Below are positions 12,876-33,969 of a stretch of 64,000 nt of DNA, piece after piece. Within the stretch, counting starts at the first letter, position 1; every line of letters begins with the position of its first letter. Origin of the DNA: Arenibacter aquaticus (lineage in GTDB: Bacteria; Bacteroidota; Bacteroidia; Flavobacteriales; Flavobacteriaceae). The stretch lies in NCBI RefSeq assembly GCF_003957295.1, contig NZ_RQPJ01000002.1:620001-684000 (forward strand), written 5' to 3'. The notes under the pieces were generated by a model that ran no database searches, was not told the DNA's origin, and saw nothing but the letters and a program-made list of their open reading frames with translations. The position numbers were made by a program, and so were the translations under genes.

Positions 12876-15338
12876 TTGTTCAAACTTATATGCCCTTTTA
12901 TGATGTGCTGTACGTTTGGTTTTTCCCAGAGTATCAACTTTGACCAATTGGGCAAAGAAAAATTGCTGCGCTATAATGGCGGAATTTCAACTAGTGCTGT
13001 TCTCTACGACGGCACCGCCAACAGGCAAAGTTTCACCTACTTCTTAAGCGGAAGTCTCAATTTTAATATTGGCGGAATATATAGCATTCCCTTATCGTTC
13101 ACCTACTCCAATCAAGATTTTGCTTTCCCAAATCCCTTTAAATTTAATCGTCTAAGTCTTCACCCGTCCTATAAATGGGCAACAGCACATATAGGGGATG
13201 TCAATATGACCTTCTCTCCTTACACCCTTAGCGGACACCAGTTTAGCGGGGCTGGGTTCGACTTAAATCCTGAAGGAAAATTTAAGATCAGTGCCATGTA
13301 CGGCCGCTTCTTGAAAGCAACAGAATACAACACCGAGGAACCAAGAGCACTTACAGCGTATAAACGCATAGGTTACGGAATAAAAACGGCCTATGATTTA
13401 GATTTTATGAAAGTAGGGATTATCCTTTTTAAGGCCAGTGATGATGAAAATTCCTTGGAAAACCCTTTCCCTATAGAACTGGGACTTACTCCAAAAGACA
13501 ATGCCGTACTTTCGTTCGAATCGGAAATCCGATTATTGGACAAAGCCCAAATCAGAATTGAGTATGCCATTTCAGGAGTGACTGAAGATGCAAGGCTAAC
13601 TGTTGCCCCGGCATCCAACGGTATACTTTCTTTTATGCTAAATGAGAATATTAGTACCAATTATTACAAAGCATTGAGCGCTTCTTTCTCTTATCCTGCG
13701 GGTAAGGGCACTGTGGGCGCTGGTTATGAACGTATAGATCCGGAATATAAGACACTGGGTGCCTATTACTTTAACAATGATCTGGAGAACATTACGCTTA
13801 ATGCAAGTCAGACCCTCCTTAACAACAAAGTAAACCTCAGTATAAATGCTGGCCTTCAACAAGACAATTTGGACAATGCCAAGAAATCGGACCAACAGCG
13901 TATTGTCAGTGCCATCAATCTTAATTATACGGCGTCGGAACGTTTGGGCATCAATGCAGGATACTCCAATTTTCAAACCTATACCAACATTCGGGACCAA
14001 TTCGATTATATCAACCAAGTTGGGAAATTCGACAATATAGACACCCTGAATTATAGACAGATATCGCAAAATGCCAATCTCGGTATAAATTATATTCTAA
14101 AAAAGACGGAGAACAAACAGCATAGTGCCAACCTCAATTTGGTGTACCAAAATTCCAATAATCAACAAGAGGGAGAAATCATAGAGGGAGGTAATAATGC
14201 ATTTTATAACGGCATGGCCGGATATACCCTTGGGTATCCCAAACAGAACCTGACCGTTAGCCTAGCCGCTAACACCTCTTACAACACAATAGGTGAATCG
14301 GACAATAACCTTACTTTAGGCCCAACATTGGCAGTTGGCAAACAGTTTATAGACAAACAACTACGCACCAATCTTTCTACCTCCTACAACACTTCTTATG
14401 CCAATGGCCAGCAACAAAATAATATATATAATTTTAGATTGAGCAGTAATTATGCCTTGTTTGAAAAACATAACCTTAGTCTAAACTTTTTAGCGCTTTT
14501 TCGGAATTCTTCATTAAATACAGGGCGCGACCTCACAATTACTGTTGGATACAATTATACCTTTGATAACTTCAATCTAAATTTGGAGCTTGAAGGCCGC
14601 ACACAAAGAGCAAATACAAACCCCCTGGGAATAAGCACAAACACCCTGAGCTTCCGATATAGAAATGTAACCTATAGTGGTACAATTCCAGAACTGAATC
14701 GACAATTATCTAACGTATTTCAAAGCACACAATTTGACAATATTCCTCTTTTTAAAAATAATGAACTAACACTTTTGCTGGCTTTGGTGAAAGATCAAAA
14801 ACAAGAGCAGCCTTATAAAGAAAATGCTATTATTTTTTTAAAAGAACTTTACTCTTTTGAAGATTTCTTGGCAACGTTTAATAATGCCCTATTTAGCGTT
14901 ATACAAAAAATTAAATTGGACATGCATAATATCGACTTGACTTTGGAAAATAGCTTCGTAGATTCCAAAGTAAAAGTTGACGCACACCCGTTGAACAAAA
15001 AGGACGAGGAAATTGAGGCTACTGAAGAAGAAAGGTCTGCTTTTAATACGCTTTTAGCAGAACGGGAAGAGCGACTGCAAAAATTAGTAGGCCACCGCTG
15101 GATGCAAAGGATATTTATAGAATTCAAGTCAATTGATGTTGTTCAAAAACCAGAAGGATTTCTAAAGGAATTCAAACAGTGGGCATCCATAAAATCCTTT
15201 GAAATTTTTGATCAAACTAAAGATCTCAGTGAATTGAAAGACTATATAGAAAATAAGATTATTGATTTTTATTATAAGAAATCCTTAGGAAACGTAAGCC
15301 CAGATGATTTTAAATTGAAGTATATAAATAAAAACTAA
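12876..15338 (+). CDS. Outer-membrane beta-barrel protein with helical C-terminal domain
   Basis: This 820-aa protein starts at a TTG and carries a Sec signal (MFKLICPFMMCCTFGFSQS). Residues 25-640 are long runs of alternating polar and hydrophobic residues rich in N, Y, S and T with aromatic strand ends (for example LSGSLNFNIGGIYSIPLSFT and ITVGYNYTFDNFNLNLELEG), as in a large outer-membrane beta-barrel. From about 650 the sequence changes to a charged, helical region (ATEEERSAFNTLLAEREERL) without strands, which would lie in the periplasm. I recognise similar barrels beside TANFOR-type proteins in Bacteroidota but know no assigned function. It is the first gene of the accessory locus, 218 bases (56 to the upstream ATG) before the TANFOR-like gene. 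Confidence 0.75.
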   Translation: MFKLICPFMMCCTFGFSQSINFDQLGKEKLLRYNGGISTSAVLYDGTANRQSFTYFLSGSLNFNIGGIYSIPLSFTYSNQDFAFPNPFKFNRLSLHPSYKWATAHIGDVNMTFSPYTLSGHQFSGAGFDLNPEGKFKISAMYGRFLKATEYNTEEPRALTAYKRIGYGIKTAYDLDFMKVGIILFKASDDENSLENPFPIELGLTPKDNAVLSFESEIRLLDKAQIRIEYAISGVTEDARLTVAPASNGILSFMLNENISTNYYKALSASFSYPAGKGTVGAGYERIDPEYKTLGAYYFNNDLENITLNASQTLLNNKVNLSINAGLQQDNLDNAKKSDQQRIVSAINLNYTASERLGINAGYSNFQTYTNIRDQFDYINQVGKFDNIDTLNYRQISQNANLGINYILKKTENKQHSANLNLVYQNSNNQQEGEIIEGGNNAFYNGMAGYTLGYPKQNLTVSLAANTSYNTIGESDNNLTLGPTLAVGKQFIDKQLRTNLSTSYNTSYANGQQQNNIYNFRLSSNYALFEKHNLSLNFLALFRNSSLNTGRDLTITVGYNYTFDNFNLNLELEGRTQRANTNPLGISTNTLSFRYRNVTYSGTIPELNRQLSNVFQSTQFDNIPLFKNNELTLLLALVKDQKQEQPYKENAIIFLKELYSFEDFLATFNNALFSVIQKIKLDMHNIDLTLENSFVDSKVKVDAHPLNKKDEEIEATEEERSAFNTLLAEREERLQKLVGHRWMQRIFIEFKSIDVVQKPEGFLKEFKQWASIKSFEIFDQTKDLSELKDYIENKIIDFYYKKSLGNVSPDDFKLKYINKN

Positions 15339-15451
15339 GGCCCTACCCCCCTAAAGGCCTATAATTCTAATATCCAACCGGATACTATTATTGTATGGCG
15401 AAACTGTTACGATTGCATGTCTTAATTTTTACCATTTATAAAGGGGGGATT

Positions 15452-15463
15452 CCCTTTAAAGGG
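15452..15463. repeat. GC-rich palindrome in a noncoding-looking leader
   Basis: CCCTTTAAAGGG is a perfect 12-bp palindrome preceded by GGGGGGATT. A related string, CCCCCCTAAAGGCC, occurs about 100 bases upstream in the gap after the barrel gene. This looks like an intergenic repeat rather than protein-coding DNA and bears on the start of the next gene. Confidence 0.5.
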
Positions 15464-15556
15464 TTGCGTGCGGGTATATTACGTCAAAATCAAATTCTTT
15501 CGATTAATGCTGATAATCTTCAATCCTTAAGTAAAAAGTCTATTGGGCCTAAACGA

Positions 15557-18500
15557 TTGGAGATCGTATTCCTTTGGATTCTGCTAGCAGTCAATTGCTT
15601 AGTTGCTACAGCGCAATCCTTTCCTGTACAAGTAATCCCCCAAGTTAGCCCACCACCACCTATATTCTTTTCGCAATATGCCAATGCCAGTACCGCAAAC
15701 GGTCCCTTACGGCTTCAAATTATACTGAACGATTTAGAAATCAATAATCGTGAAATTCGGTTAAAGGCCTATTTTCAAGGAAATGGAATTTCATTCCAGA
15801 GCAATGATGTAATAATTGGCTCAAGGCCCTTATTTTTAGAAGGCGGTGTCCCCTTGGTATTGACCAACGAAGAACTGGCGCCATATTTTCGCTTTGAAAA
15901 TATTACGGGTATTTCGCCTACTGTTTATGGACAAGTTATTCCCGAAGGAGCCTATCAGTTTTGTTATGAGGTGTATGATGTCCTTACCGGCAATCGCCTT
16001 TCCCAAAAAAGCTGTGCCGTTAGTGTAATCTTTCAGAACGAACCACCTTTTTTAATATCCCCTAGGAACAGAACATTCATTGCCGAAAATAATCCGCAGA
16101 ATATAATATTTCAATGGACACCTAGGAGTATTAACGTTAGTAATGTGGAATATGAGCTAAGCATGGTAGAAATTTGGGATAACCAAATAGACCCGCAAGC
16201 CGCATTTTTAAGTTCCCCTCCTGTTTTTCAGACTTCTACAACCGCCACCACCTATGTATATGGTCCATCCGACCCTCTATTACTATCTGGCAAAAACTAT
16301 GCCTGGCGGATACAAGCAAAAGCCAAACAAGGTGCAGAAGAAATTGGACTATTTAAAAATCAGGGCTATAGTGAGATATTCTACTTCAGCTTTGCTGGAT
16401 CCTGTGATTTGCCCATAGGTATAAGCCATAAGGTAAAAGGTAGCAGCAATACCAACATTTTCTGGGATGATTTTACTACTGATATTCCAGAGTATACTAT
16501 TCGCTATAGACAGAAATCGAACCAAGGTGGAGGGAATGAATGGTTTTTGAATAGAACCACTACCAACCAAACTACACTATGGGATTTGAAGCCCGGTACC
16601 ACCTATGAATACCAATTGAAGAAAAAATGTGTGGTTACAGGCAGCGAATGGAGCACGGTCCAACAATTCACCACCTTTTTAGCCGATAATGAAACCAGTG
16701 TTTATCAATGTGGAATTACGCCTAATTTTAGCCTCACCAATAAAGAACCACTTCCCAAATTAAGTACTGGAGAAAGTTTTATAGCAGGGGATTTCCCTAT
16801 TAATGTTTTAGAGGTTAGTGGCAGCAACGGCAGATTTACCGGCAAAGGCTATGTCACTATTCCCTATTTGAACAGTATTAAGGTTGGGGTAGAATTCACG
16901 AATGTATCGATCAATACCGATAAGCATATGTCCGAGGGTGCCGTGAATACTGTGTATGATCCCAACTTAGCGAGTATTCTGGATGTGGATGAGGTGGTGG
17001 ATACGGTTACTGACGTTTATGATGCTGTCGCGGATTTAGGAGCAAGTGTAGATGACATACTTAAAAATGTTTTTGGTGATGATGACGAAAATGAAGAAAA
17101 TGCACCTAGGATAGAGTCGGAAGACATTGAAGATAAACCGATTAACCCTACAGGTGATAATATTGCAGACTTAGACACTAATGGAAATAACAGATATGCA
17201 CATGTCGATACCACAAGTGGCGATTCCGGCAATACCTCCAATACAACTAGTGGGCCAAACAATAACGACAATGAAGGTGTTAATTTGAATTCAAGCCCAA
17301 GTCTCGAGTCCGTTACTACAACCAATGAAAAAGTTGTAATTGAATTTAACGGAACAGCTTATAACAATAACGACGTAATAACAGTTCCATATGACAAAGA
17401 TAATTCGCACTATGCTTTTTTGTTGAAGAATTATCCAAAAGACGATTCGCTCAATTGGCAGGTATTATATCTAGGTTCAGATTACACTTCAAAACATGTC
17501 ACAAATGAGCCTAAATATGACAACTTAGGGATCGATATGAAAAAAGTTTACAGCTTAGATATTGTAGCAAATTATAATGACCAAAAAATTAAAGTAACTA
17601 TAAAAAGGGAACTTGAAGATTTTAATTTAGTGGACATTTATGCCAAACCAGAGGATAGCCCCAGAAGAATTGCTAAAACAGGGAAGAAATTGTATTTAAA
17701 GGGGTCTGCAACATCTCTCACTAAAGCAAATCGGAAACTAGATTTCAGTGTCAACATCAGTCCTAATCTTTCCACAGGAGATATTTCTGTACAGGATATT
17801 ATCTGGTATTATGAGAAACCCAATAGTCAATATAATTTAGGCCAAAATTATGGTGATAAAGACATCCATATCAGCCTTACCGAACAAGATAAAACCTATT
17901 GGGTTAAAGCTAAAGCAGGAAACCCTGAGTCGATGGAAAAGGCCATTGAAGTTGTTTGGTTTGATACTAACAGGTCTACCTATAATTTTTTGCCTCCAAA
18001 TGTGAATGCCTTACTGTCCGATACTTTCAAGGAGATTGAAAACAACTTCGATTTAATGGGCAAATACATTCCTATTGCAGGAATGAAATTCAAATTAGAT
18101 CCTATTAAAACCGAGGGGTTAAAATACAATGAAGAAGATCCCAACTCTAGATTATATAAACAATATGAACAAGGTTCCGTTAAAGGAGGGATTTCAGCTG
18201 AATTAAAGAAAATACAAATAACCCATCCTGTGCTTAAAATATTATCGGAAGTGGGTATCGCGGATATTGGACTCTATGTTAAAATAAAAGCGGCTATTGT
18301 GGCAAAAGGCGGTGTTGAAAGATTTAAGTATATAGAACATACTGAGTTTGAAAATAACAATCCATTTCTAGAAATAGGTCCAAGTGGTTGTATTGAGGCC
18401 GGTGTTGAGGCAAAATTATTGGTGGCAAGGGATTTGGTAGACTTCGATGTTCGGGGTTTTGCTATGGGTTGTTTAGCGGGTAAAATAAAGTATGGATTTC

Positions 18501-18664
18501 TCTCCAAAAAATTAGAAGGTGAACTTTATATACCTCCAGTTGTCTTAGGTGGTAAGGTTAAAATAGAGACTAAGGGGACACTAGAATATGAATTGATTGA
18601 TTGGAAAAGTACAATTAGTATATCCGATAAAATTGAATTGGGCAAAATTGAAAAGCAATTTTAA
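15557..18664 (+). CDS. TANFOR/Fn3-like exported protein with distinct C-terminal half
   Basis: From the TTG at 15557 this is a 1035-aa protein with a normal signal peptide (MEIVFLWILLAVNCLVATAQS). An upstream in-frame ATG at 15395 would place 54 unlikely residues before the signal, partly encoded by a GC-rich palindrome. The first roughly 370 residues (FPVQVIPQVSPPPPIFFSQY, then LRLQIILNDLEINNREIRLK and YEVYDVLTGNRLSQKSCAV) resemble the TANFOR domain, followed by fibronectin type III-like modules with Y-x-W-R-I-Q-A and TTYEYQLKKKC motifs. An acidic, N/D/S/T-rich linker (about 17075-17300) separates an AT-rich C-terminal half of no recognised family. Surface or secreted effector roles are inference. 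Confidence 0.7.
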   Translation: MEIVFLWILLAVNCLVATAQSFPVQVIPQVSPPPPIFFSQYANASTANGPLRLQIILNDLEINNREIRLKAYFQGNGISFQSNDVIIGSRPLFLEGGVPLVLTNEELAPYFRFENITGISPTVYGQVIPEGAYQFCYEVYDVLTGNRLSQKSCAVSVIFQNEPPFLISPRNRTFIAENNPQNIIFQWTPRSINVSNVEYELSMVEIWDNQIDPQAAFLSSPPVFQTSTTATTYVYGPSDPLLLSGKNYAWRIQAKAKQGAEEIGLFKNQGYSEIFYFSFAGSCDLPIGISHKVKGSSNTNIFWDDFTTDIPEYTIRYRQKSNQGGGNEWFLNRTTTNQTTLWDLKPGTTYEYQLKKKCVVTGSEWSTVQQFTTFLADNETSVYQCGITPNFSLTNKEPLPKLSTGESFIAGDFPINVLEVSGSNGRFTGKGYVTIPYLNSIKVGVEFTNVSINTDKHMSEGAVNTVYDPNLASILDVDEVVDTVTDVYDAVADLGASVDDILKNVFGDDDENEENAPRIESEDIEDKPINPTGDNIADLDTNGNNRYAHVDTTSGDSGNTSNTTSGPNNNDNEGVNLNSSPSLESVTTTNEKVVIEFNGTAYNNNDVITVPYDKDNSHYAFLLKNYPKDDSLNWQVLYLGSDYTSKHVTNEPKYDNLGIDMKKVYSLDIVANYNDQKIKVTIKRELEDFNLVDIYAKPEDSPRRIAKTGKKLYLKGSATSLTKANRKLDFSVNISPNLSTGDISVQDIIWYYEKPNSQYNLGQNYGDKDIHISLTEQDKTYWVKAKAGNPESMEKAIEVVWFDTNRSTYNFLPPNVNALLSDTFKEIENNFDLMGKYIPIAGMKFKLDPIKTEGLKYNEEDPNSRLYKQYEQGSVKGGISAELKKIQITHPVLKILSEVGIADIGLYVKIKAAIVAKGGVERFKYIEHTEFENNNPFLEIGPSGCIEAGVEAKLLVARDLVDFDVRGFAMGCLAGKIKYGFLSKKLEGELYIPPVVLGGKVKIETKGTLEYELIDWKSTISISDKIELGKIEKQF

Positions 18665-18870: not shown

Positions 18871-19575
18871 ATGATTGAAAATAGAATGTTTTTTATAGTT
18901 GCATTATTAATACACACACTAGGGAATGCACAAGAAGAAAATGCAAATCTGATTCTAAGCTACCCAGAGGAATCAGAAATATCTTTTTTTCAATATCCGG
19001 AGGGTACCAATGCATATGCCATTTATAAAAGTAGAGCCGAAATCACCAATGAGTATCCCGAACAGCTATTAGAGTCCATTATTTCAGCTACAAATCAAGA
19101 TTGGGTAGACTATAATACTCTGGGCGGTGCAGAAAAGGTATCAAAAAAGAAACAAAGCCATTTTGACAAAGTAAAGGCCATGGATAAGGCCAATAACTAC
19201 TTTGAATTGGCCCATAAACTAACATTTGATGTAGGAGGGGTGTCCACTGCTATAATAAAATTCTTTACCCACTTTCAAGAGATGGAAGTACTATCAGGTG
19301 TTGCGGTAATGCAATTTGTGGATGGCAGATGGCAAAAAACTTCTCACCATTCCTTGTCTACCCTCTCTATAGTTGTAATGAGAATGAAACCAGAAGTGCT
19401 AGAGGGAATTGTATTGCTAAATTCAGATGATCCTAATATAAAGGCTTTAGCTGAACGAGTTACCCGAGAGGGTGTCTTGGATTTATCCTTACTTGAAGAT
19501 GAATTTAGAAGCTGGTATTCCCCAGAAAAAGATGAAACAAAAATAGAACTATATAAAGACCCAAGAACTTGGTAA
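18871..19575 (+). CDS. Exported protein of unknown function (234 aa), effector-partner candidate
   Basis: The N-terminus MIENRMFFIVALLIHTLGNA is a Sec signal, so the mature protein is periplasmic or secreted. The body is mixed alpha/beta, with the segments FDKVKAMDKANNYFELAHKL and FVDGRWQKTSHHSLSTLSIV. I recognise no family. It follows the TANFOR-like gene after 206 bases and precedes the 209-aa gene by 19 bases. Its second half shows faint similarity to that neighbour. Position after a bipartite exported protein suggests a partner or immunity role, but nothing in the sequence proves it. Confidence 0.65.
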   Translation: MIENRMFFIVALLIHTLGNAQEENANLILSYPEESEISFFQYPEGTNAYAIYKSRAEITNEYPEQLLESIISATNQDWVDYNTLGGAEKVSKKKQSHFDKVKAMDKANNYFELAHKLTFDVGGVSTAIIKFFTHFQEMEVLSGVAVMQFVDGRWQKTSHHSLSTLSIVVMRMKPEVLEGIVLLNSDDPNIKALAERVTREGVLDLSLLEDEFRSWYSPEKDETKIELYKDPRTW

Positions 19576-19594
19576 AACTCCTAAAACACCACAT

Positions 19595-20224
19595 ATGAAA
19601 ATTAAGATTATAGTAGCCCTCTTTTTTATATCACACTCATTGTTCTCTCAGTTAGACTACGAAACATTTAATGGAAATAAAGGAAAAATGAGATTTAGCA
19701 AATCATACGGCTATACCAATCTATATGACTATAGGGTAAACGCAAGTGAAGAGGATTCATTAATAACTAGAAAATTAAGTTCATCAATTCCTGAAGGTTT
19801 ACTTACTGACCAATATGTTAAGGAGCTTTTGTCCAATAAAAGGGATTCTATAAACTTCAAAATTATTATGGATTCCAGGTTGCTGGTAGACATGAATGCA
19901 GATCGTGTTTGCTTGATTAAATACAGTACAGGTTCCAACAACACAGTATCGGAAAAAAACATTTTTAAAGCTGTTAAAACTGGCGGTAGTTGGAGAGAGC
20001 TCAACATTGCAAATAGCGAGATAAGCCTTTTAGAGCAGATTCTATTGGGAGCAAGTGTAGAGGTGCTATTTCAATTCTATAACCGTTGGAACGATCCCGA
20101 ATACCCTGATATAAATAAAATGAAACTAGAAGTAAAAGACGAAGAGGGAGCTTTAAACATAAAAAAACTAGCAGAAGTAGTAACTAACAATACAGCAGTT
20201 CTGCAAAAATATGATCATAAATAA
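19595..20224 (+). CDS. Exported protein of unknown function (209 aa)
   Basis: A signal peptide (MKIKIIVALFFISHSLFSQ) precedes a body of about 190 residues with no recognised domain. The segment FKAVKTGGSWRELNIANSEI followed by SLLEQILLGASVEVLFQF parallels the G-R-W-x-x-x-x-x-x-S-L-S-T-L region of the 234-aa protein upstream. The 19-bp spacing indicates one transcript with that gene. It ends just before the left REP repeat of the transposase unit, so the boundary between this pair and the rest of the locus carries a mobile-element mark. Confidence 0.65.
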   Translation: MKIKIIVALFFISHSLFSQLDYETFNGNKGKMRFSKSYGYTNLYDYRVNASEEDSLITRKLSSSIPEGLLTDQYVKELLSNKRDSINFKIIMDSRLLVDMNADRVCLIKYSTGSNNTVSEKNIFKAVKTGGSWRELNIANSEISLLEQILLGASVEVLFQFYNRWNDPEYPDINKMKLEVKDEEGALNIKKLAEVVTNNTAVLQKYDHK

Positions 20225-20261
20225 AGGGCATAGGTTATCGCAGTAGTAGTTCCCCTCGCTA

Positions 20262-20283
20262 GCGCGAGCGTCACGCTCGTGCC
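20262..20283 (+). repeat. Left REP repeat of the transposase unit
   Basis: This 22-base sequence is an exact reverse complement of 20943-20964 on the other side of the transposase gene. It contains an internal near-palindrome, CGAGCGTCACGCTCG, able to fold as a hairpin. It is much richer in G and C than its surroundings. Confidence 0.88.
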
Positions 20284-20340
20284 GTCAACAGTGAGCGGTA
20301 AAGAGCAAGTATTGTAGAACATTGTAGTCAGTAAATAAGT

Positions 20341-20913: not shown

Positions 20914-20942
20914 AGGATGATGTTCTAAATAGTAGCTGTATG

Positions 20943-20964
20943 GGCACGAGCGTGACGCTCGCGC
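20943..20964 (-). repeat. Right REP repeat of the transposase unit
   Basis: This is the exact reverse complement of 20262-20283 across 22 bases. Outside the perfect match, 4 of the next 6 bases away from the transposase gene also pair (TAGCGA against CAGCGG). It begins 29 bases after the transposase stop. Confidence 0.88.
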
Positions 20965-21024
20965 CAGCGGTTATAGATGTTTTACGACCATAATTGCTTA
21001 TAGAAATGAACGGTAACAGCCCTC

Positions 21025-21121: not shown

Positions 21122-24100
21122 ATGACTAAAAACTACATACATATCATCCTGTTCTTATGTTGCAGCCTACTTTGGGCGGTTCCAACCAACTCTCCTCATG
21201 AGACCTGTGCTGAGTGCAGTCGAAGTAGGGGTGGTGAATCCGGGGTGTGTCTTTCTGAAGTCATATTTACCATCTCCAAAGACTCCCTATTTCCAAAAGA
21301 AAAAGACTCCACCAAACTTAAGAAACCAGACCCAAATCATTTGGTGCATTTGCAAAAGCTCGTAGCGTTTCAATCCTCTAATAAATTTTCTGTCATAAAC
21401 GAAAAAACTCCACTAATCCCGGTAGTTATTGGGACGCATGGGGAAAATTCTTCTCACATAAACGAAAAAGAAGGAAAAACCTTCCGTACCTTCCCCTCAC
21501 TTGACCAAAAACTAGTACAAAAAGAAGATTTCAAAGTTTCCTTTACCAACCTTAAACCTGAATTTACATCAGAATATATTTCCACTAATTTTTCCAAAAA
21601 TCCCAAAACGGATACCCTTGTAGCTAGGGCCAAAAGAGCTTTCAAGGCAGTTAAGGAATTGGGCAACTTTGTCGACATTATTACAGGGAAAGAATTGTTG
21701 CAACTCCCCGTTGGACTAAGTAAAAAAGATTCTACCTCCGGGAATCGTGTGGAACTTGCCATCACCCAAGTAAAATTTCTGCCACAATATGCGGAACTCA
21801 AAGCCTGGGCTAAAATGATAATCCCCGTAAAAGGACCCAATGGGGAACCTAATAGGGAAATCTATTTTGGTGGAGAAGGTATAAAACTCTCTCATGATGG
21901 AGCCCTTTTGGGAGATATGAAATTGGTCTTATTAGGCGATCAGGCCATTCCTCTAAATGGAGATAATTGGCTACTGACCCTAAAAGGAGGAATAGACTTA
22001 AAAAATGGTGCCTTTGGAGATCAATCGTATGTAGAATTCGACTGTGCTGGCTTAAAGTCCATTGGTCTGGAGGCCGACTTAAGGATTTCCAGAAACATTC
22101 TGCTCCCCATTACCAGTGGTGGAAATTATGTATGTGGTGAGAGTGCGGATAACAAATATTTTAAGGATTCTAATGTTGTAAACAATAAATGCTATGTAGG
22201 TGCATCCTTTGGTGTTAAAGCGAATGGCTGGAACGACCTTTTGGTAGATATTTCGCTGCCCCAATTTGAAATAAGGGGATTAAAAGGTTGGGGGTTTAAT
22301 GTTAAAAGAGCAGTGCTGGATTTAAGTGACAGTCGGAATGCTGCTGGCATTAAATTTCCAAAAGACTACAGCGAGGTATTGGTACGTGGGGAAAGAAATC
22401 TCTGGCGAGGGTTTTACGCCAAGGAACTAAGTATTATGTTGCCAAAGGGGATAGAACATACTAAAACATCTAGCAAGAGGGTGCAATTTGGCGCGGAACA
22501 CCTCATCCTGGATGCCCAAGGAGTATCAGGCTCCTTTTTTGCAGAAAATGTATTAAATGTAGGGGAAGGTTCTGCCGGTAAATGGGCTTTCACTATTGCC
22601 GATGTAAGTCTTTCTCTCTCCAGAAATTCCCTGACAGGGGGGGCATTGGCAGGTGATATTTCCGTGCCAATTTTTGAGAAACCTATGGACTATTCTGGAT
22701 ACATACAACAAGACGGCTACGGACTGGCAGTTGGCTTGAACAGTACTTACAAGACTCCTGTCTTCCTAGGTGAAATGCAATTGGAGAAAAATTCCAGTGT
22801 GGCCATAGATGTACAGGACGGCAATGTATACCCCTCTGCCAACCTCTCAGGCCAACTGACTATAGTTGGTAAAATTGGTCAGAAAGAAGGGGAAGAGTCG
22901 CCCTCTGCAGAAATGGCCACAGATGGTGGTAAAGGATTTAATTTTCCGGGTATTGTTTTCGAGGGATTAAAGCTGGAAACCGAACCGGGCAAAAAACCCA
23001 TCAGTGCCAAAAACTTTGGATTTGAAGGAGAAATGAAGCTGATGAATTTCCCGGCTTCCGTTGAGAAGGTAGAATTGATTACGCCCAATAACCAAGCTGG
23101 TCTTTCGTTCGACCTAAAAATAAATTTGGATGGTGAAGGATCCCATGCCACTACCAGTATGCAAGTAATGGGAAAATTAGAAGACGGTGCCAAAATACAG
23201 AAATGGCAATTTGAAAGGGTTAAGGTAAATGGAATTGATATTGACTATGAAAAAAGCGGAATCACCTTAAAAGGTGGACTGGAAATTATGGAGGACCATA
23301 GTTGGTATGGCGATGGTTTTCGAGGCAATATTACGGCCACAATAAAGAGCGTTAACTTAAAGGTTAATGGCAAGGCCATTTTTGGCGTGAAGGACTTTAG
23401 ATATTGGAATGTGGATATATGGGCCAAAAACGATGAAGAAAGTAGCTCTAAATTTATGATAAACGCTATGGTTGGGGGCGTGACCTATCGTATGAAAAAA
23501 ATTCGGGGCAACACGGATGGCTTTTCCCCCTCATCAGCCGTTTACCGACCAAATGCAGATTATGGATTGGGCATACGTGCTGGGGTAGATATCAGCACTC
23601 AAAATTCGGATACCTTTAGTGGAAAGGCCTATTTGGAAATGGTATTTAATAACCATGGTGGACTAAACAGGATAGGTTTTACAGGAGAAGGTGCTTTCAT
23701 GGGGGACAATACTAGCGGAAACTTAAACAGCTCCGATTTTGGTGCGTTAAATTCAACATTCGAGAAAGTAAACAATTTTGTTGAAGACAATAAGGCTGTG
23801 GTGGACAAACTGTCCAAACATGGTAATTTCTTGGAGCTCGCCAAAGAATCGATTCCCGTCCACGATGTGGCCGCTTCGGGAAAAGCAGGGGCTTTCGTAG
23901 GAATTGAAAAGGATTTTGTAAATCAGACATTTGACGGTGAATTTGAGTTGTATCTGGATCTAGAAGGTGTTAAAGGGGGCGGGGAAAATAATTTAGCGGG
24001 CTATGCCAAAATGCACACGGGACCAGAAGACTGGTACATATACCTTGGAACTCCGCAAAAAAGGATAGAGCTACTGTTTCAGGTAGGGACACAACTAAGG

Positions 24101-26143: not shown

Positions 26144-26172
26144 CCCAAAGCTCATTGTAAAACTTATTCATC

Positions 26173-28230
26173 GTGAAAGAACTTGTACTATTACTCTTAC
26201 TAACCTCTGTTCTCTGTGCCCAAGATACCGCATCGGTCAAGGTTATAGCACGCTCCTTGCCAAACAAAGTTCTTTTGGGATGGGCAGTGGACGAGCCTTT
26301 GGCCTGGAAGAAAGCCAATGAAGTAGGTTTTTGGATAGAACGTGCAACCATTTCCAGAAATGGCGAGGCAGTGGTGCCAATAGAAAGGAAACAATTGGTC
26401 GCACAACCACTAAAACCGAAACCTCTGGGTGAATGGGAGGTATTGGCCCTAAAAGATCAGAATGTAGCCATATTGGCCCAAGCCTTATATGGAGAAACCT
26501 TTGAGATTAGTCCACCTGGCAGTCAGATGGGTGCTATTTATACAATAAACGATGAATTGGAACAGCGCTTTACTATAGCCTTGGTAGCGGCCGAACAAAA
26601 CTATGAGGCTTCAAAATTGGCGGGATGGGCCATAGAGGACCCTTCGGTTATTGCTGGTGAAAAATATGTTTATTCAGTCTCGGTGGCAAAACTAGCGCAA
26701 ATAAGAATTCCTATTAATAGTGGAACAGTATATGCCAGCACTGATGATTTCGAAGCCCTTCCGGAACCCATAGGTTTGACTGGTGTCTTTACGGATCAAA
26801 AAGTTACATTGAGCTGGAACTTTAATTTGCTACAACATGTTTACACAAATTATCATATCGAAAGATCAAAGGATAATATTTCCTATGAACAATTAAATGG
26901 GGTTCCCATCTTTAGCGCCCAACAGGACAAGGAATCCTCTGATATATCCATGTTCTATATGGATTCTATTCCCAATAACACTAATTTCTATTATCGAGTA
27001 ATAGGAAAGACCGCCTTTGGGGAAACTGGACCAAGTTCGAAAATAGTACAGGGCAAAGCAAAAGAAACATTGGGTTTTGTGCCTAGAATATATCAAAAAG
27101 AACTGTCCACGGATAATAAGGTATTACTCCGATGGGAATTTAAGGAGGAAGGAAACAAATTAATTGATAAGTTTCAACTGCGCAAGGCAAACAGCAACCA
27201 AGGTCCCTTTTCTACAGTAGTAGACAATATTCCGATAACAGCTAGGGAAATAACTTATGAAGGTTTGGAAAGGGTTAATTATTTCACCATCGTCGCTATA
27301 GGCAAAAAAGGTACGGAAAGTGAATCTTATACCTCCTTGGTACAACCAGTAGATTCCGTACCTCCCTCTCCACCAACTGGCCTGAAAGGAACAATAGACA
27401 CAACTGGAGTCGTTACCTTATCCTGGTCAAAAAATCTGGAAGAGGATTTAGGCGGATATCGAATATACCGGTCATATAATCTACAGGTGGAGTTTAGCGA
27501 AATTACACAGAGAACTTCTAAACAAGAAAATTATACTGATACTGTAGCAATAGCCAATTTAAATAAAAAAGTATACTACAAGATATTGGCGGAGGACAAA
27601 CGTTTTAATCGATCGCTGTTTTCTAATGTATTGGTCATTAACAAACCTGACCTTACTCGTCCGTCTTCTCCAATACTGAACAATTATGAGGTTACAACTG
27701 ATGGGATAAAATTATTTTGGATCCCAAGTAGTAGTGATGATGTTGCCTTCCACAAATTATATCGAAAAAAAGAAAGCGTACAAGAAACACTCTGGGAAAA
27801 ATTACACGAATCGAATTCAACTGTGGATTCCACTTTTTTTGACTCCACATTGAAGAAACCGAGTGTTTACCACTATACCGTGGTGGCTACAGATTCTGTT
27901 GGATTGGAAAGTCTACCGGCCAAGCCCATTAAGGTAATATGGAAGGGAAAAACTATTAAAGAAGAGGACATTAGGTTCTCAGGAACTGTAAATCGTGAAT
28001 TGCGATTTATCAACCTCACATGGAGGGTAAAGGATTTTGATGCTGTAGAATTCCGCCTATATAAGGGAACGGAAGGAAAGGGTCTTAAGCTATATAAAAC
28101 TATGGGGGGATCGGCCAAAGGGTATAACGATGTGGATTTGAAAATTAATTCAGATTATTTATATGGTTTGCAAGTAATTCAAAATGGTGGCGGAACATCC
28201 AAACTAAAAAAGATTAATGTAAAGTACTGA
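26173..28230 (+). CDS. Exported fibronectin type III repeat protein (685 aa)
   Basis: A GTG start gives a signal peptide (MKELVLLLLLTSVLCAQ). Several fibronectin type III-like modules follow, each with a conserved W in a strand such as VTLSWNF, VLLRWEF, VTLSWSK and IKLFWIPSS, and a Y-x-Y/T-x-V strand such as FYYRVIGKTAFG and YHYTVVATDSVG. About five modules are visible from residue 195 onward, and the first 190 residues contain a diverged one. These domains bind other proteins or glycans. No T9SS C-terminal domain was seen. It starts 29 bases after the 1673-aa gene and ends 3 bases before the SprB-repeat gene, so the three are one operon. Confidence 0.85.
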   Translation: MKELVLLLLLTSVLCAQDTASVKVIARSLPNKVLLGWAVDEPLAWKKANEVGFWIERATISRNGEAVVPIERKQLVAQPLKPKPLGEWEVLALKDQNVAILAQALYGETFEISPPGSQMGAIYTINDELEQRFTIALVAAEQNYEASKLAGWAIEDPSVIAGEKYVYSVSVAKLAQIRIPINSGTVYASTDDFEALPEPIGLTGVFTDQKVTLSWNFNLLQHVYTNYHIERSKDNISYEQLNGVPIFSAQQDKESSDISMFYMDSIPNNTNFYYRVIGKTAFGETGPSSKIVQGKAKETLGFVPRIYQKELSTDNKVLLRWEFKEEGNKLIDKFQLRKANSNQGPFSTVVDNIPITAREITYEGLERVNYFTIVAIGKKGTESESYTSLVQPVDSVPPSPPTGLKGTIDTTGVVTLSWSKNLEEDLGGYRIYRSYNLQVEFSEITQRTSKQENYTDTVAIANLNKKVYYKILAEDKRFNRSLFSNVLVINKPDLTRPSSPILNNYEVTTDGIKLFWIPSSSDDVAFHKLYRKKESVQETLWEKLHESNSTVDSTFFDSTLKKPSVYHYTVVATDSVGLESLPAKPIKVIWKGKTIKEEDIRFSGTVNRELRFINLTWRVKDFDAVEFRLYKGTEGKGLKLYKTMGGSAKGYNDVDLKINSDYLYGLQVIQNGGGTSKLKKINVKY

Positions 28231-28233
28231 GAT

Positions 28234-31200
28234 ATGAGGGAATTTCTTTTAATTCTATTTATCCAATTTACCGTGTTTACCTGCTATTCTCAAAATTATT
28301 ATAAATTGGAATGCGATTTTTCAACTACAGGTACAGTGTCAAGAGCTAGAACTATAGTAAATGTTTTGAAAGCTAATGGAAATTCCGAAGAAGTTTTTGT
28401 TGATTATTTCGAAGGAGTTAATGGAGAAAAGAATATTATATCTGTCCTGAATCTAGATTCAAAAATAATTGAATTTACAGTCGAAGTTTTTTGGTTTCAA
28501 GCAGAAAAATTACCCATAGGTAGCTGCAGAAATTCTGAAGCCATTATCTATGATTCTGCCAGTTGCAATAGTACATTAAGTGTTAATTGTAACAGCAACG
28601 GGACGTCCAGTGGTTTACCTGGTTCTGTTAATTCTGTTGTCCAAATTAATGGCATTAATATAGTATCTCCGGAAATAAATGAACCTTTTTCCCAATGTAG
28701 TCCTATTTCAATTCCTGTTATTGCAAATTGTAATAATTTAGATGTTGACAAATGGTATTATACTCTACAAGATGGAACTATTCAATATCTTGATGGCCAT
28801 GATGGCGAAAATCCAATTGTATTTTTACCATCTGAATTGTCCAAGAATTCTGTAGATTATATTAACAATCCTGTTAAATTAACAGCTCGATTTGTACTTT
28901 ACCCTAAAGCTTTTAATACTATTATAGATATAAAAGCATGTTCCCCCACCCTTATCCCTGAATTAACATCAACAGGCAACACAAGCTGTTATGGTACTAA
29001 CGACGGTGCTGTTACCCTAACCTTTGATAACGATGTAGATCGTGCGGAAGGGTATGAAATGCGTTATTTTATTTATCAGGGAGACCCTCCTGAAAATCCA
29101 GGGCTTTTAGACCTGGAAAGCGATAACCCTCCATTTCCAAATCAAGCTTTCGCCGATCCCCTTGGAATTGATATGGAACCCTTGGCCGATGGCAGTGGGA
29201 ATTACTCCGGAACATATGCCGGACTGGATGGTAGTAGTACCGTTGACAATGGCAATACAATACTTAATCATGCCGACTATTACATAATTTATCAGGAGGT
29301 GCGTTATAATTTTCCAAACCCCGGAGACGTTGAGGTGAAAAGTGGAAATATTACTCCAATGTTCACCATTGCCAGACCCACAGAAATAAGTTTGTCCCTA
29401 GAAAATATAATTCAGCCTAATTGCGCTGGAGAAATGGGGTCTGTCACATTAACTGGACAGGGCGGAGGATTCCCTCCCAATGAAAATATATCCTTGGAAT
29501 ATGGCATTCAAGGCGATGATGATAGCTGGCAACTAGAACCCACGTTTTCTGACCTTGCATCAGGCACCTACATTTTTTTAGCGCGCAGTACAGATGGGTG
29601 TGTAAGCCTACCTACTGATCAAATTACGATATCCGAGCCTACAGAATTAACCTTTTCAACACCATCTCACGGTAAAACATCATCAAGTATAGCGATGGAT
29701 GGGGTCATCAGCATATATTATGATGGAGGAACTCCCAATTATACTTTTGAATTGACCAAGGAAAACGAAACTACTCTAGAATTTGAAACAATTACAAACC
29801 CCAAATTATTTCACAATAGTCTAAACCAAAAGGTTGAATTTCAAGAACTAGGAATTGGCACCTACAGGGTAACTATAACAGACACCAAGGGTTGCAATTT
29901 AACTTCCGAAAATATTGAGGTTACAACAATACCACCTCCCGAGATTGTTGACCAGCAAGTGAATCAAATAGTCTGTCCCAATGGTAGTGATGGAAGTATC
30001 TCTTTATCTATTTCTGGAGGAGTCCTTAATTATAACTACCAATGGACTATTAACGGGCTCATATCCCCCATTCAAACCACAGGAAATCAAACAATCTCAC
30101 TAAACAATCTATCAGAACCTGGAGAATATATTTTAAAAGTCGCTTCAACCGGCTTTACCGATTTTAATGAACCATCTGGATACGCCAGTACCACTATCAC
30201 TATGAATACTCCAGAAGAGGTAATTATCACTTCCGTTGAGCCAACTAATATTAGTTGTTTAGGGGCACAAGATGGATCTATTGCAATCAGCACTTCCGGC
30301 GGCTTAAACTACGAATATAAATTGGACTTTTTCGATATATGGAAACCTCTTAACAACGGAATGATTCCTATATCCAATGGTGGATTCTATGATGTTTATC
30401 TTAGAAACGAGAATAATTGTGAAGCCAATCCTGTAATTAATGTATTGGTCTCAGAACCGGATGAACTTACAGTTTCGTCGACTTCAGATAATGCAACTAC
30501 AAATGGTGGAAATCAAGGGAGCATTACGCTCAACATAGTTGGAGGAACACCATTTTCCGGTCCTGCAGAACCATATGTGATTTCGTGGACCAAGGACGGT
30601 CAACCCTATTCGATCCCAACCGGATCTACCGGTTCCAATCTTATCAACTTGGAAGCTGGCGAATACATAGCTCAAATCACCGATGCCAACGGTTGTTCAT
30701 CCACTAGTAACCCACCAATTACTATAAACCAACCAGATCCATTGGAAATTAATAGTGTTTTAATTCAAAAAGAAATCTCTTGCTTAGATGCCGCCGATGG
30801 TATTATCATTGCCGATGTAAATGGAACCTCACCAATTACTTTTGAATGGTATTTAAACGGATTTCCTTTTCGCACCTTGATCGATAATAATACTTTAACT
30901 GATATTGGACCGGGGGATTATCAACTTTTCCTCAATGATGAATCTTCAAATACTCCCTTGGAAAGTGAAGTAATCACCGTGACATCACCATTACCTATTT
31001 CGGTTACTACAGACATAAGCCCTATCTCATGCTATGGAGGGAATGATGGTATTATAAGAGTCAATGTTATTGGAGGCACAGGAAGATTAAACTATCAAAT
31101 CACAGGGCGGTCACAACAAACCAGCCCATTATTCGACAATCTATTTTCAGGCACATATTCCCTAATAGTAACCGATGAAAATGGTTGTACTTCTGTTCCA

Positions 31201-33969
31201 ATTGATGTTTTTGTTCCTGAGTCAACGGCAATTCAAATATCTGAAAATACCATAGTACCTGTATCCGTTTCGGGAGGAAATAACGGAGCAATATCTATTT
31301 CAGTGCTAGGGGGAACCAGTCCGTATACATTTGAATGGTCAGGTCCCAATGGATATACCAATACTACCCAAAACATTTCCAACCTCAGTACTGGATCATA
31401 TACCCTGATCATAAGAAGCTCAGGAAACCAAGGGGGTATAGATGGATGTTATGCAACTGAAACCTTCTTTGTGGATGAGCCAGGGCCACTTGCCATATCC
31501 AATATTACTACTACAGATGTAAATTGTAAAGGGGAAAGCACTGCAGGTATTACCACTACCGTTACCGGACAAGGAAACATTTTGTATGCATGGACAATGG
31601 CTGATGGAAGCCCCATAGTAATGAGTAATGGTACGGACGGTCCAAATATCTCTGGTATTGCTGCTGGCAGCTATATTTTAACCGCGACCAACAGTATTGC
31701 TACCGTGTCAACCAATCCAATCATTATTGCTGAACCACTTTCCCCATTGGCAGTAACCAATATATATGTTACCGATGCAAGTTGCTCTGGAAGTAGTGAT
31801 GGATCCCTTCAAATTGAGGCTAGCGGAGGTACGGCACCGTACACTTATTCGTTGAACGGCACCGACTATCAGAGTTCCAATGTATTTAACAATCTACTTT
31901 CCGGAGACTATACTATTCATATTCAAGATAATAAGGGGTGCACACTAAGCTCAAACACTGTGGCTTTACAACAACCTCAACCATTATACTTTTCAATTGA
32001 TGAACAGCATACAATATCTTCTCCCAATGCATCGGACGGTGCCATAGGTATAACTGCATGGGGAGGAACTGGGGATTTAAATTATAGTTGGACAGGACCT
32101 AATGGGTTTACCTCAATGGATGAAGATATTATTGACTTAGCTGCTGGGGACTACGTACTGACAATTACCGACAATAATTATGTTCTCAACAATGACCATG
32201 GCTGTATGTTGATATCGGACCCCATCACCATCTCTGAGCCTAGGGCCCTTATAGTCGACCTTGTTCAAACCGTAATGCTCGAATGTAACGGAGATGATTT
32301 TGGTGAAATTACGGCTACCGTTCAAGGTGGAGTCCATCCTTATACCTATGAATGGTTTGAGGCAACACATAGTAATTCTATCTTGGAAGAGAATACAGAA
32401 ATTATTGGAAATCTCTCAGCGGGACAATATTTTGTCAGGGTTACTGATGCCAACGCTATTTCGGTAGATGCGACCCCCATAAATATAGAACAACCCGAAA
32501 TACTGGAAATAATAGCAGATGAAATCACAAATGTGCTATGTGATGGTTCCGCTGATGGAATCATTACGGTTTCCGTATCAGGAGGAACCGGCCCATATAA
32601 CTACTATTGGAGCAATGGGTCTACCGATAAAAATTTATCTGGCCTAGAATCTGGGGAATATACTGTGGAAGTTTATGATGATAATGGTTGTTATACGGAG
32701 GCGACATTTACCATTCAACCTACATCTGATCCAGTGCATATAATAAATGCAGCGGTAAGCAATAATTCGGAATACATGGCCAACGATGCAAGCATCTCTA
32801 TTGAAATTGGAGGTGGGACCTCACCGTATGCTATTGATTGGGTCCGACTTTCGGACAATATGGCAATGGGAAGCAACCCGGAAATTACTAATCTACAAGC
32901 AGATTCCTATGAGGTTTTCATTTCTGATGCCACTGGGTGTTTTATATCAGAAACCTTTGAAATAAGCGAACCTGGTATTGTGGAGGAAACCATAAAACAC
33001 CCCAGCTGTTCTGGCCAAAATGATGGGAGTATAGAGGTCATAGTAGATCAAGGTAACGGCAATTTCTTTTATAGTTGGGACACTGGCCAAACAACAAACA
33101 ACATCTATGATTTAGCTCCGGGAGAATATACCTTAACTATCAATGGGCTGGGTGATGTTCCATTAACAAGAACTTATCTGATTGAAGAACCAAGGTCCCT
33201 AGAAATTGATTTGGGAGGGGACAGGACCCTTTGTTCTGGGCAAGAGTTGGTGTTAAATGCTAGTATAGACGATTACAATGCCACTTACAGTTGGACTTCA
33301 GATAACGAATTTTATAGTACAGCCCCAAGCGTTACTATTAATAAAAGTGGCACTTATTCTGTAGTTGTTTCCAACCAATATGGGTGTACGGGAAATGCAA
33401 GTGTTTTTGTTGATGTATCAAATGATGAAATCACAGCAGAATTCGCCGTTTCAAGTCAAGTTTTTGTAGGTGAACCGTTAATTGCTGTGGATATAAGCTA
33501 TCCCCTGCCTGAAACCCAAACCTGGATTTTGCCAGAGGGCGCAACAATTTTAAAAGAAGATTCGGACGAGACTGAAATGGTATTCTCTGAGCCTGGTGAA
33601 TACGAAATAGGGATTATAACGCAAAATGGTGAATGTTTCGCAGAACAGACCAAAAAAATTCTGGTTGTTAAGAATGAGATATTAACGGAAGAAGGGCAGA
33701 TAGAACCAGATAGGTTGATTACAGATTTTATCATTTATCCCAATCCGACAAATGGAAAATTTACTGCCGACATTGGCCTTTCTGAGAGGGGCAATATCAA
33801 TATTAAGATCTTTAATTTTGCCAACAATGCCCTTATGTCCTCCAAAAAGGACAGGGGAGAATCTTCTTATACCATACCCTTTGATCTCTCTGGCCTGCCA
33901 TCTGGAGTATACGCTGTGTTACTGGAAACCCCTTTTGGAAATTCATTGAGAAAGGTTATTTTGAAATAA
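28234..33969 (+). CDS. SprB-repeat surface adhesin with T9SS type A sorting domain (1911 aa)
   Basis: After a signal peptide (MREFLLILFIQFTVFTCYSQ) come about 16 repeats of the SprB type, each about 70-110 residues. Typical pieces are SCxGxxDGSI, GGTxPYxYxW, LxxGxYxxxVxDxxGC. A PKD-like module lies near residues 1735-1810 (SSQVFVGEPLIAVDISYPLP). The C-terminal roughly 80 residues have the type A signal, FIIYPNPTNGKFT, then a module ending LSGLPSGVYAVLLET and FGNSLRKVILK. SprB-family proteins are exported by the T9SS and carried on the cell surface, where the known one serves gliding. No T9SS core or gliding gene is in the window. It is the last gene of the locus. Confidence 0.92.
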   Translation: MREFLLILFIQFTVFTCYSQNYYKLECDFSTTGTVSRARTIVNVLKANGNSEEVFVDYFEGVNGEKNIISVLNLDSKIIEFTVEVFWFQAEKLPIGSCRNSEAIIYDSASCNSTLSVNCNSNGTSSGLPGSVNSVVQINGINIVSPEINEPFSQCSPISIPVIANCNNLDVDKWYYTLQDGTIQYLDGHDGENPIVFLPSELSKNSVDYINNPVKLTARFVLYPKAFNTIIDIKACSPTLIPELTSTGNTSCYGTNDGAVTLTFDNDVDRAEGYEMRYFIYQGDPPENPGLLDLESDNPPFPNQAFADPLGIDMEPLADGSGNYSGTYAGLDGSSTVDNGNTILNHADYYIIYQEVRYNFPNPGDVEVKSGNITPMFTIARPTEISLSLENIIQPNCAGEMGSVTLTGQGGGFPPNENISLEYGIQGDDDSWQLEPTFSDLASGTYIFLARSTDGCVSLPTDQITISEPTELTFSTPSHGKTSSSIAMDGVISIYYDGGTPNYTFELTKENETTLEFETITNPKLFHNSLNQKVEFQELGIGTYRVTITDTKGCNLTSENIEVTTIPPPEIVDQQVNQIVCPNGSDGSISLSISGGVLNYNYQWTINGLISPIQTTGNQTISLNNLSEPGEYILKVASTGFTDFNEPSGYASTTITMNTPEEVIITSVEPTNISCLGAQDGSIAISTSGGLNYEYKLDFFDIWKPLNNGMIPISNGGFYDVYLRNENNCEANPVINVLVSEPDELTVSSTSDNATTNGGNQGSITLNIVGGTPFSGPAEPYVISWTKDGQPYSIPTGSTGSNLINLEAGEYIAQITDANGCSSTSNPPITINQPDPLEINSVLIQKEISCLDAADGIIIADVNGTSPITFEWYLNGFPFRTLIDNNTLTDIGPGDYQLFLNDESSNTPLESEVITVTSPLPISVTTDISPISCYGGNDGIIRVNVIGGTGRLNYQITGRSQQTSPLFDNLFSGTYSLIVTDENGCTSVPIDVFVPESTAIQISENTIVPVSVSGGNNGAISISVLGGTSPYTFEWSGPNGYTNTTQNISNLSTGSYTLIIRSSGNQGGIDGCYATETFFVDEPGPLAISNITTTDVNCKGESTAGITTTVTGQGNILYAWTMADGSPIVMSNGTDGPNISGIAAGSYILTATNSIATVSTNPIIIAEPLSPLAVTNIYVTDASCSGSSDGSLQIEASGGTAPYTYSLNGTDYQSSNVFNNLLSGDYTIHIQDNKGCTLSSNTVALQQPQPLYFSIDEQHTISSPNASDGAIGITAWGGTGDLNYSWTGPNGFTSMDEDIIDLAAGDYVLTITDNNYVLNNDHGCMLISDPITISEPRALIVDLVQTVMLECNGDDFGEITATVQGGVHPYTYEWFEATHSNSILEENTEIIGNLSAGQYFVRVTDANAISVDATPINIEQPEILEIIADEITNVLCDGSADGIITVSVSGGTGPYNYYWSNGSTDKNLSGLESGEYTVEVYDDNGCYTEATFTIQPTSDPVHIINAAVSNNSEYMANDASISIEIGGGTSPYAIDWVRLSDNMAMGSNPEITNLQADSYEVFISDATGCFISETFEISEPGIVEETIKHPSCSGQNDGSIEVIVDQGNGNFFYSWDTGQTTNNIYDLAPGEYTLTINGLGDVPLTRTYLIEEPRSLEIDLGGDRTLCSGQELVLNASIDDYNATYSWTSDNEFYSTAPSVTINKSGTYSVVVSNQYGCTGNASVFVDVSNDEITAEFAVSSQVFVGEPLIAVDISYPLPETQTWILPEGATILKEDSDETEMVFSEPGEYEIGIITQNGECFAEQTKKILVVKNEILTEEGQIEPDRLITDFIIYPNPTNGKFTADIGLSERGNINIKIFNFANNALMSSKKDRGESSYTIPFDLSGLPSGVYAVLLETPFGNSLRKVILK

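What the first reader, a model, noticed from the sequence alone, without database searches (positions are those of the whole stretch)
12876..33969. Accessory surface-protein locus of unusual size, candidate undescribed T9SS-linked system
Six of seven genes here encode Sec signals: a beta-barrel, a TANFOR/Fn3-like protein, two small proteins, a 1673-aa beta-protein, a 685-aa Fn3 protein and a 1911-aa SprB-repeat protein with a T9SS type A domain. All genes point one way and the last three are separated by 3-29 bp. Seen directly: order, spacing, signal peptides and the T9SS tail. Inference: a surface complex, perhaps with the barrel as an outer-membrane base and the large proteins as exported parts. 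I know of no described system with this set, but similar genes may be co-located in other Bacteroidota.
Basis: partly seen in the sequence, partly recalled or inferred. Interest (0 to 1): 0.75.

Follow-up and report, generated by a model that had tools for sequence, protein, structure and literature searches.

The report
TANFOR toxin locus with barrel module
These marine bacterial genes most likely make an interchangeable toxin with its protective proteins, together with a conserved set of surface proteins, including a large outer-membrane barrel of no known family, that may carry or display the toxin.

Summary
The gene set is real and widespread. Its 1089-aa gene is a divergent relative of the TANFOR polymorphic toxins (Jana et al. 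2020, PMC7073777). In 74 T proteins (window included) the N-terminal part forms one family, while the last 200 residues fall into 45 clusters, some with known toxin domains: ADP-ribosyltransferases, EndoU, TNT, WHH, SHH. The window's own C-terminus matches nothing; its two small downstream genes are the best immunity candidates. The flanking genes are the new part. A ~24-26-strand barrel (12876-15338), a 1673-aa beta-rich 'core' and a 685-aa Fn3 protein co-occur across the class: 41 of 42 core-positive genomes have the barrel, against 68 of 395 overall. They are often adjacent, and in 10 class-wide genes TANFOR and core are one protein. Barrel and core match no Pfam (over cut-off), NCBIfam or PHROG family, and my searches found no paper on them. 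None of 74 T C-termini matched the T9SS type A sorting domain, so the export route is open; the barrel is my leading candidate. Verdict: a new variant of a known toxin class, with an undescribed conserved surface module.

The parts
12876..15338 (+). B: 820-aa outer-membrane barrel (TTG start), residues ~31-568 barrel of about 24-26 strands, residues ~604-806 helical domain
   Evidence: AlphaFold2 model; Foldseek top hits MtrB and pilus ushers at low TM; no Pfam/NCBIfam/PHROG family; T within 800 bp downstream in 71 of 77 close relatives with room; sequence match to the helical part in 3 of 48 class-wide B (window, L100, L102) and in 78 of 78 of the closer set, which was picked by similarity to this barrel
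15395..18664 (+). T: 1089-aa TANFOR-family polymorphic toxin; conserved between about residues 100 and 500, variable after that
   Evidence: Fn3 at 350-422; identity to Arenibacter T 79-92% at 100-500, about 30% or less beyond 600 except in same-type loci; 55 of 115 family N-termini match TIGR02542, the window's does not
18871..19575 (+). p: 234-aa exported small protein, candidate immunity protein
   Evidence: among the 80 loci, homologues in L163, L171, L172, L185, L207 and a fragment in L164; signal-like N-terminus
19595..20224 (+). r: 209-aa exported small protein, candidate second immunity protein
   Evidence: homologues in L163, L171, L172, L185; p and r both match one 425-aa ORF in L171
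20265..20279 (.). REP palindrome upstream of the transposase (arms 20262-20282)
   Evidence: only 4 exact sites in the genome
20341..20913 (+). REP-associated tyrosine transposase (RAYT), hitchhiker between cassette and core
   Evidence: NF047646 over cut-off; one of 2 matches in the genome, the only one over the cut-off
20947..20961 (.). REP palindrome downstream of the transposase (arms 20943-20965), inverted pair with the first
21122..26143 (+). Core: 1673-aa beta-rich exported protein; fused to TANFOR in some other families
   Evidence: no family over cut-off; 42 of 395 genomes; fused forms L110-L112, L114, L117, L118, L150-L153; model of residues 150-1335, pLDDT 76, pTM 0.44
26173..28230 (+). 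F: 685-aa Fn3 protein
   Evidence: Fn3; within 700 bp after core in 21 of 23 (window included) and 3 of 3 core genes with room downstream; 45 of 395 genomes
28234..33969 (+). S: 1911-aa SprB-repeat protein with T9SS type A sorting domain
   Evidence: SprB-type gene directly upstream of B in 24 of 79 B genes of the closer set and 12 of 47 of the class-wide set

Best explanation
The locus is a polymorphic toxin/immunity locus of the TANFOR kind built onto a dedicated surface module. T carries a constant N-terminal part that belongs to the module and an exchangeable C-terminal toxin. The small genes behind it, here p and r, are its immunity proteins; both look exported, so this allele probably acts in the periplasm or at the inner membrane. 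B, core, F and S form the envelope part: S is sent out and anchored by T9SS, B sits in the outer membrane as conduit or anchor for T and core, and core plus F make the scaffold that presents the toxin to neighbouring bacteria. Shown here: gene set, linkage, fusion of T with core in relatives, constant/variable split, known toxin domains in relatives. Inferred: that the window's own C-terminus is a toxin, the immunity role of p and r, the target compartment, delivery to neighbours, and the job of B.
For: One N-terminal cluster of 74 against 45 C-terminal clusters of 74; the last 200 residues of 78 B proteins stay in one cluster. Window T against Arenibacter T: 79-92% identity at residues 100-500, then a drop. 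In 74 C-termini ADPrib_exo_Tox, ART, Endonuclea_NS_2, EndoU, TNT, deaminase, SHH, WHH, RES and colicin-DNase domains occur; in 88 small downstream proteins there are single matches to Imm49, SUKH-1 and NADAR. T length 741-2595 aa, n = 73. B to T within 800 bp in 71 of 77, median gap 28 bp; class-wide 29 of 46, median 3 bp. Core-positive genomes with B 41 of 42; F-positive with B 43 of 45; T-positive with B 36 of 39; background 68 of 395. T and core in one ORF in 10 class-wide genes. Published toxicity and immunity of another TANFOR C-terminus (PMC7073777).
Against: The window's own C-terminus matches no toxin family, p no Pfam family, and r only one far below cut-off. TIGR02542 misses the window protein. 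Most T C-termini and nearly all of the small downstream proteins match no Pfam family. In the 10 fused proteins the C-termini fall into only 4 clusters, so the module is not always a toxin carrier. B has no T within 800 bp in 17 of 46 class-wide loci. The p-values ignore shared ancestry, and the 80 closer loci were chosen by barrel similarity. No experiment bears on B, core or F.
Confidence: 0.75

Rival explanations
1. T is exported by T9SS, for example carried by S or another sorting-domain protein, and B/core/F only anchor or shape the surface complex.
For: S has a type A sorting domain; no SprA-negative genome is among the B-, core- or T-positive ones; Jana et al. propose T9SS export; PorP-type barrels anchor T9SS cargo (PMC9143113, abstract seen).
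Against: No type A sorting domain matched in the 74 T C-termini scanned; SprA is nearly universal in the sample (385 of 395), so its presence is not informative.
Confidence: 0.4
2. It is an adhesion or substrate-binding surface complex; the variable C-termini are binding specificities, not toxins.
For: Fn3 and SprB modules; few C-terminal clusters in the fused forms; window C-terminus without known toxin domain.
Against: Several alleles carry known toxin domains and a few downstream proteins match immunity families; exchange pattern with allele-specific small genes.
Confidence: 0.1
3. The module is functional but this toxin allele is a decayed or incomplete cassette: relatives with a related cassette have an extra 148-167-aa gene with hydrophobic stretches between T and p that the window lacks.
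For: L163, L171, L172, L185, L207 have it; the window has a 206-bp gap there and tblastn finds no convincing remnant; a RAYT unit lies next to the cassette.
Against: T, p and r are intact ORFs, p and r still 19 bp apart; RAYT genes stand beside other cassettes too.
Confidence: 0.2

Closest known systems
TANFOR polymorphic toxins, e.g. F. hydatis TANFOR-BaCT (Jana, Salomon, Bosis 2020, PMC7073777)
   Same: constant N-terminal part with Sec signal, often with Fn3; variable C-terminal toxin; immunity gene behind; SprB/Fn3/sorting-domain neighbours
   Different: TIGR02542 does not reach the window protein; the word 'barrel' does not occur in the paper's main text, and I saw no mention of a core protein in the parts read; its figures and supplements were not seen
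Contact-dependent inhibition CdiB/CdiA (two-partner secretion), recalled
   Same: outer-membrane barrel gene beside a large toxin with variable C-terminus and an immunity gene
   Different: B has about 24-26 strands and a helical C-terminal domain instead of a 16-strand barrel with POTRA domains (recalled); no family match; CdiB is not among the 50 Foldseek hits listed for B, though two CdiB chains appear weakly among those of core (E 5e-3 and 7e-2, TM at most 0.16)
PorP/SprF barrels that anchor T9SS type B cargo (PMC9143113, abstract and section list seen)
   Same: dedicated outer-membrane barrel linked to a large surface protein
   Different: B matches no NCBIfam model and is larger (size of PorP recalled); its neighbours carry a type A domain (S) or no sorting domain matched (T, core, F)
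Pilus ushers (FimD, PapC) and MtrB
   Same: very large barrels, among the top Foldseek hits of B (E 1e-10 to 5e-7)
   Different: TM-scores 0.2-0.4, identity about 10-13%; no family match

Membership tests
TANFOR polymorphic toxin class | N-terminal TANFOR domain (TIGR02542) | tested here: inconclusive
   Not matched in the window protein; 55 of 115 family N-termini match at E <= 0.1, best 1.9e-12. The window N-terminus finds all 115 at E < 1e-5, but the family was gathered with it
TANFOR polymorphic toxin class | polymorphic C-terminal toxin domains | tested here: met
   Met by the family: 45 clusters of 74, known toxin domains in relatives. The window's own domain is unknown
TANFOR polymorphic toxin class | immunity gene immediately downstream | tested here: inconclusive
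   Allele-specific small genes present; single matches to Imm49, SUKH-1, NADAR among 88 scanned, i.e. p, r and 86 of the 97 downstream ORFs found; function untested
TANFOR polymorphic toxin class | neighbourhood with SprB, Fn3 and T9SS sorting domain | tested here: met
   window genes F and S
TANFOR polymorphic toxin class | toxicity neutralised by cognate immunity protein | not testable with these tools
   needs expression assays
T9SS substrate (for T) | C-terminal sorting domain, type A | tested here: not met
   PF18962 is not among the 10 families matched by the last 330 residues of 74 T proteins; in the window only S carries it
PorP/SprF barrel (for B) | match to a curated NCBIfam model | tested here: not met
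   0 families for B at E <= 0.1; that the library holds a PorP/SprF model is recalled
CdiB/TpsB transporter (for B) | POTRA plus 16-strand barrel (recalled) | tested here: not met
   no family match; model shows about 24-26 strands and a C-terminal helical domain
REP-associated tyrosine transposase (20341-20913) | NF047646 over cut-off and flanking REP palindromes | tested here: met
   91.1 bits, cut-off 80; inverted palindrome pair

The most novel reading that the evidence does not exclude
B is the founding member of a dedicated outer-membrane export and display apparatus (barrel + TANFOR/core + Fn3 protein) conserved across Bacteroidia, which moves its cargo without a T9SS sorting domain; Flavobacteriaceae split the cargo from the core, added a helical domain to the barrel, and turned the machine into a delivery system for exchangeable toxins.
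Probability: 0.3. Interest if true: 0.85.

Novelty: new variant of a known kind. Interest (0 to 1): 0.62.

Why it matters
TANFOR toxins were published with a hypothesis but no demonstrated route out of the cell, and none of the 74 toxin C-termini scanned here matched the type A sorting domain. This work puts a specific, recurrent and unannotated set of partners (barrel, core, Fn3 protein) next to them in many families, so the export question becomes a matter of a few gene deletions. If the barrel is the conduit, it is a new outer-membrane transport route in a phylum that is abundant in seas, soils and guts.

Tried and rejected
Defence system: no PADLOC match in the six proteins scanned (B, T, p, r, core, F). 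Solved structures by sequence: nothing significant; one match for B at E 0.13, none for core, Fn3 proteins at E 0.11 and worse for T. Core fold: model of modest confidence (pTM 0.44) whose best Foldseek hits (LptD, TM about 0.1) I treat as uninformative. T9SS co-occurrence: SprA in 385 of 395 genomes, so not informative. p and r as paralogues of each other: BLAST too weak (E 0.16). Homology of the T C-terminus to core: weak (E 0.011), not claimed. Remnant of the missing 148-167-aa gene in the window: no tblastn match better than E 1.6. Paper searches with TANFOR, T9SS, polymorphic toxin, SprB repeat, interbacterial and similar terms listed no paper that I recognised as dealing with the barrel or core; most listed papers were seen as listing only. 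The reviews PMC10202324 and PMC11205867 were searched for words and their main texts do not contain 'TANFOR'; PMC12419801 passages mention T9SS-associated toxins of another kind.

Full report
What is in the window. Eight ORFs on the + strand fill 12876-33969, flanked by minus-strand ORFs at 11387-11917 and 34005-35243. In order: B 820 aa, T 1089 aa, p 234 aa, r 209 aa, a REP-associated tyrosine transposase of 190 aa, core 1673 aa, F 685 aa, S 1911 aa. Gaps are 56, 206, 19, 116, 208, 29 and 3 bp. Pfam finds Fn3 in T and F, SprB repeats and a Por_Secre_tail in S, and nothing in B or p; r and core have only matches below cut-off (DUF4522 0.035, Big_5 0.038). NCBIfam and PHROGs add nothing for B or core.

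Relatives. I searched 395 genomes of the same class (drawn evenly; Bacteroidia by the named relatives, class name recalled) with four of the proteins: core is found in 42, B in 68, T in 86 (including matches to Fn3 alone), F in 45. The tool scores only the best one or two candidates per genome, so some absences may be false. Presence is strongly linked: 41 of 42 core-positive genomes have B, 43 of 45 F-positive have B, 39 of 45 F-positive have core, and 36 of 39 genomes with a T match of 70 bits or more have B, against 68 of 395 overall; only 26 genomes have all four. These counts ignore shared ancestry. I chose and fetched 60 stretches around such genes, and took 80 loci from a barrel-alignment scan of named genomes, the best 80 of at least 552 by similarity to the window barrel. 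The closest are Arenibacter (83-86% identity over B), so the window comes from Flavobacteriaceae close to or in that genus.

Gene order. Outside the window's own family one recurrent form is B, then one protein in which TANFOR and core are fused, then F, on one strand with few bp between, for example L110, L117 and L151; TANFOR and core are fused in 10 genes of the 60 stretches. Core is followed by F within 700 bp in 21 of 23 (window included; misses L103, L112) and 3 of 3 core genes with enough sequence behind them. In the 80 closer loci B is followed by T within 800 bp in 71 of 77 with room; of the six others two lie near a contig end (L174, L176), two have a small ORF inserted and T about 900 bp away (L163, L177), one has a split B (L187) and one shows no T (L165). 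In the class-wide set it is 29 of 46; in several of the rest B stands beside a SprB-type gene and T lies elsewhere. Order varies between Flavobacteriaceae: typically F-...-S-B-T in Flavobacterium, with core upstream where the stretch reaches (L099, L101, L236), and typically B-T-small genes-core in Arenibacter, Maribacter, Zobellia and Aquimarina, with exceptions such as L165, L205 and L214.

Polymorphic toxin. Among 74 T proteins (73 relatives and the window) residues 81-400 make one cluster and the last 200 residues 45 clusters (39 with looser settings); the last 200 residues of 78 B proteins make one. Window T is 79-92% identical to Arenibacter T between residues 100 and 500, 44-57% at 500-600 and about 30% or less beyond, except in loci with the same C-terminal type (L163, the first T of L172, L185), which keep 42-76%. 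In 74 C-termini (last 330 residues) Pfam finds ADPrib_exo_Tox (5), ART (4), Endonuclea_NS_2 (3), EndoU (2), TNT (2) and single XOO_2897-deaminase, SHH, WHH, RES and colicin-DNase domains; some may fall on the same protein, most members match nothing, and the window's matches nothing. Among 88 small downstream proteins there are single NADAR, Imm49, SUKH-1, PQQ_2 and deaminase matches. TIGR02542 (TANFOR) matches 55 of 115 T N-termini at E <= 0.1 but not the window's; the window's N-terminus finds all 115 at E < 1e-5, though these were gathered by similarity to it. So T belongs to a family that includes TANFOR proteins but itself lies outside the reach of that model.

The window's cassette. p and r both start with signal-like stretches. 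In 62 loci with a first downstream gene, 18 first genes have such a stretch; three of these are large (727-927 aa) and may be toxins themselves. I infer that the window's toxin acts outside the cytoplasm. Relatives with a related cassette (L163, L172, L185 by T and p/r; L171 by p and r; L207 by p only) have one more gene of 148-167 aa with hydrophobic stretches between T and p, which the window lacks.

Barrel and core. The AlphaFold2 model of B (65 sequences, mean pLDDT 83.4, pTM 0.56) has about 24-26 strands up to residue 568 and a helical domain from about 604. Foldseek ranks MtrB and pilus ushers high with TM 0.2-0.4, which says 'very large barrel' and no more. A sequence match to the helical part is found in 3 of 48 class-wide barrels (window, L100, L102, all of the window's family) and in 78 of 78 of the closer set; the latter were chosen by similarity to this barrel, so the restriction to this family rests on the class-wide set. 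The core model is of modest quality and its fold matches are not informative.

Mechanism. Shown: linkage, fusion, constant/variable split, toxin domains in relatives, a T9SS type A domain on S. Inferred: B as conduit or anchor, core and F as scaffold, S as T9SS-exported surface partner, p and r as immunity. The export route is the weak point: none of the 74 T C-termini matched the type A sorting domain (other sorting domains were looked for only in the window's proteins), and T9SS presence is not informative in this sample.

Literature. PMC7073777 was read in its abstract, introduction, results and part of the methods, with a word search of the main text; its figures and supplements were not seen. 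It defines the TANFOR toxin class and reports SprB, Fn3 and sorting-domain neighbours. My searches (listed under Tried and rejected) showed nothing on the barrel or core. The library lacks most subscription papers and holds no bioRxiv preprints, so an account may exist elsewhere.

Noticed in passing
window 20262-20965: A RAYT transposase flanked by an inverted pair of REP palindromes (CGAGCGTNACGCTCG) sits between toxin cassette and core; the genome has only 2 RAYT matches and 4 such exact palindromes. RAYT-like genes occur in 11 of 80 related loci, and lie between T and core in 7 of 46 loci that show both.
   Followed up: partly
L170 18275-20344: Two RAYT genes in tandem with four REP palindromes at the same place of the locus.
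   Followed up: no
G000:C4:442838-448960: The other two REP palindromes of the genome lie 6 kb apart, without a RAYT match between them.
   Followed up: no
L172 2729-12688: One barrel followed by two TANFOR genes with similar N-terminal parts and different C-terminal clusters: a tandem cassette; the second is cut by the end of the locus.
   Followed up: partly
L163, L177 (12.8-13.2 kb); L162, L167, L171 (just before T): Small ORFs inserted between barrel and T, resembling DUF559-type endonucleases (L163, L177) and a 23S-intervening-sequence protein (L171); names recalled, not tested; those of L162 and L167 were seen by size and place only.
   Followed up: no
L171 16616-17893: p and r counterparts are one 425-aa protein, suggesting they work together.
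   Followed up: partly
L187 and L232, barrel region: Barrel gene split into two ORFs; sequencing error or decay.
   Followed up: no
window 26173-28230: F matches a phage tail PHROG (phrog_1696, 1e-13) at residues 428-639, probably through its Fn3 domains, and an exoglucanase model far below cut-off.
   Followed up: no
window 34005-43908: Multi-CxxCH protein, FG-GAP-like lipoprotein and a SusD/SusC-like pair on the minus strand beside the locus (names recalled from the sequences, not tested).
   Followed up: no
window 9454-11364: 636-aa exported protein resembling a peptide-N-glycosidase F type protein (recalled, not tested).
   Followed up: no
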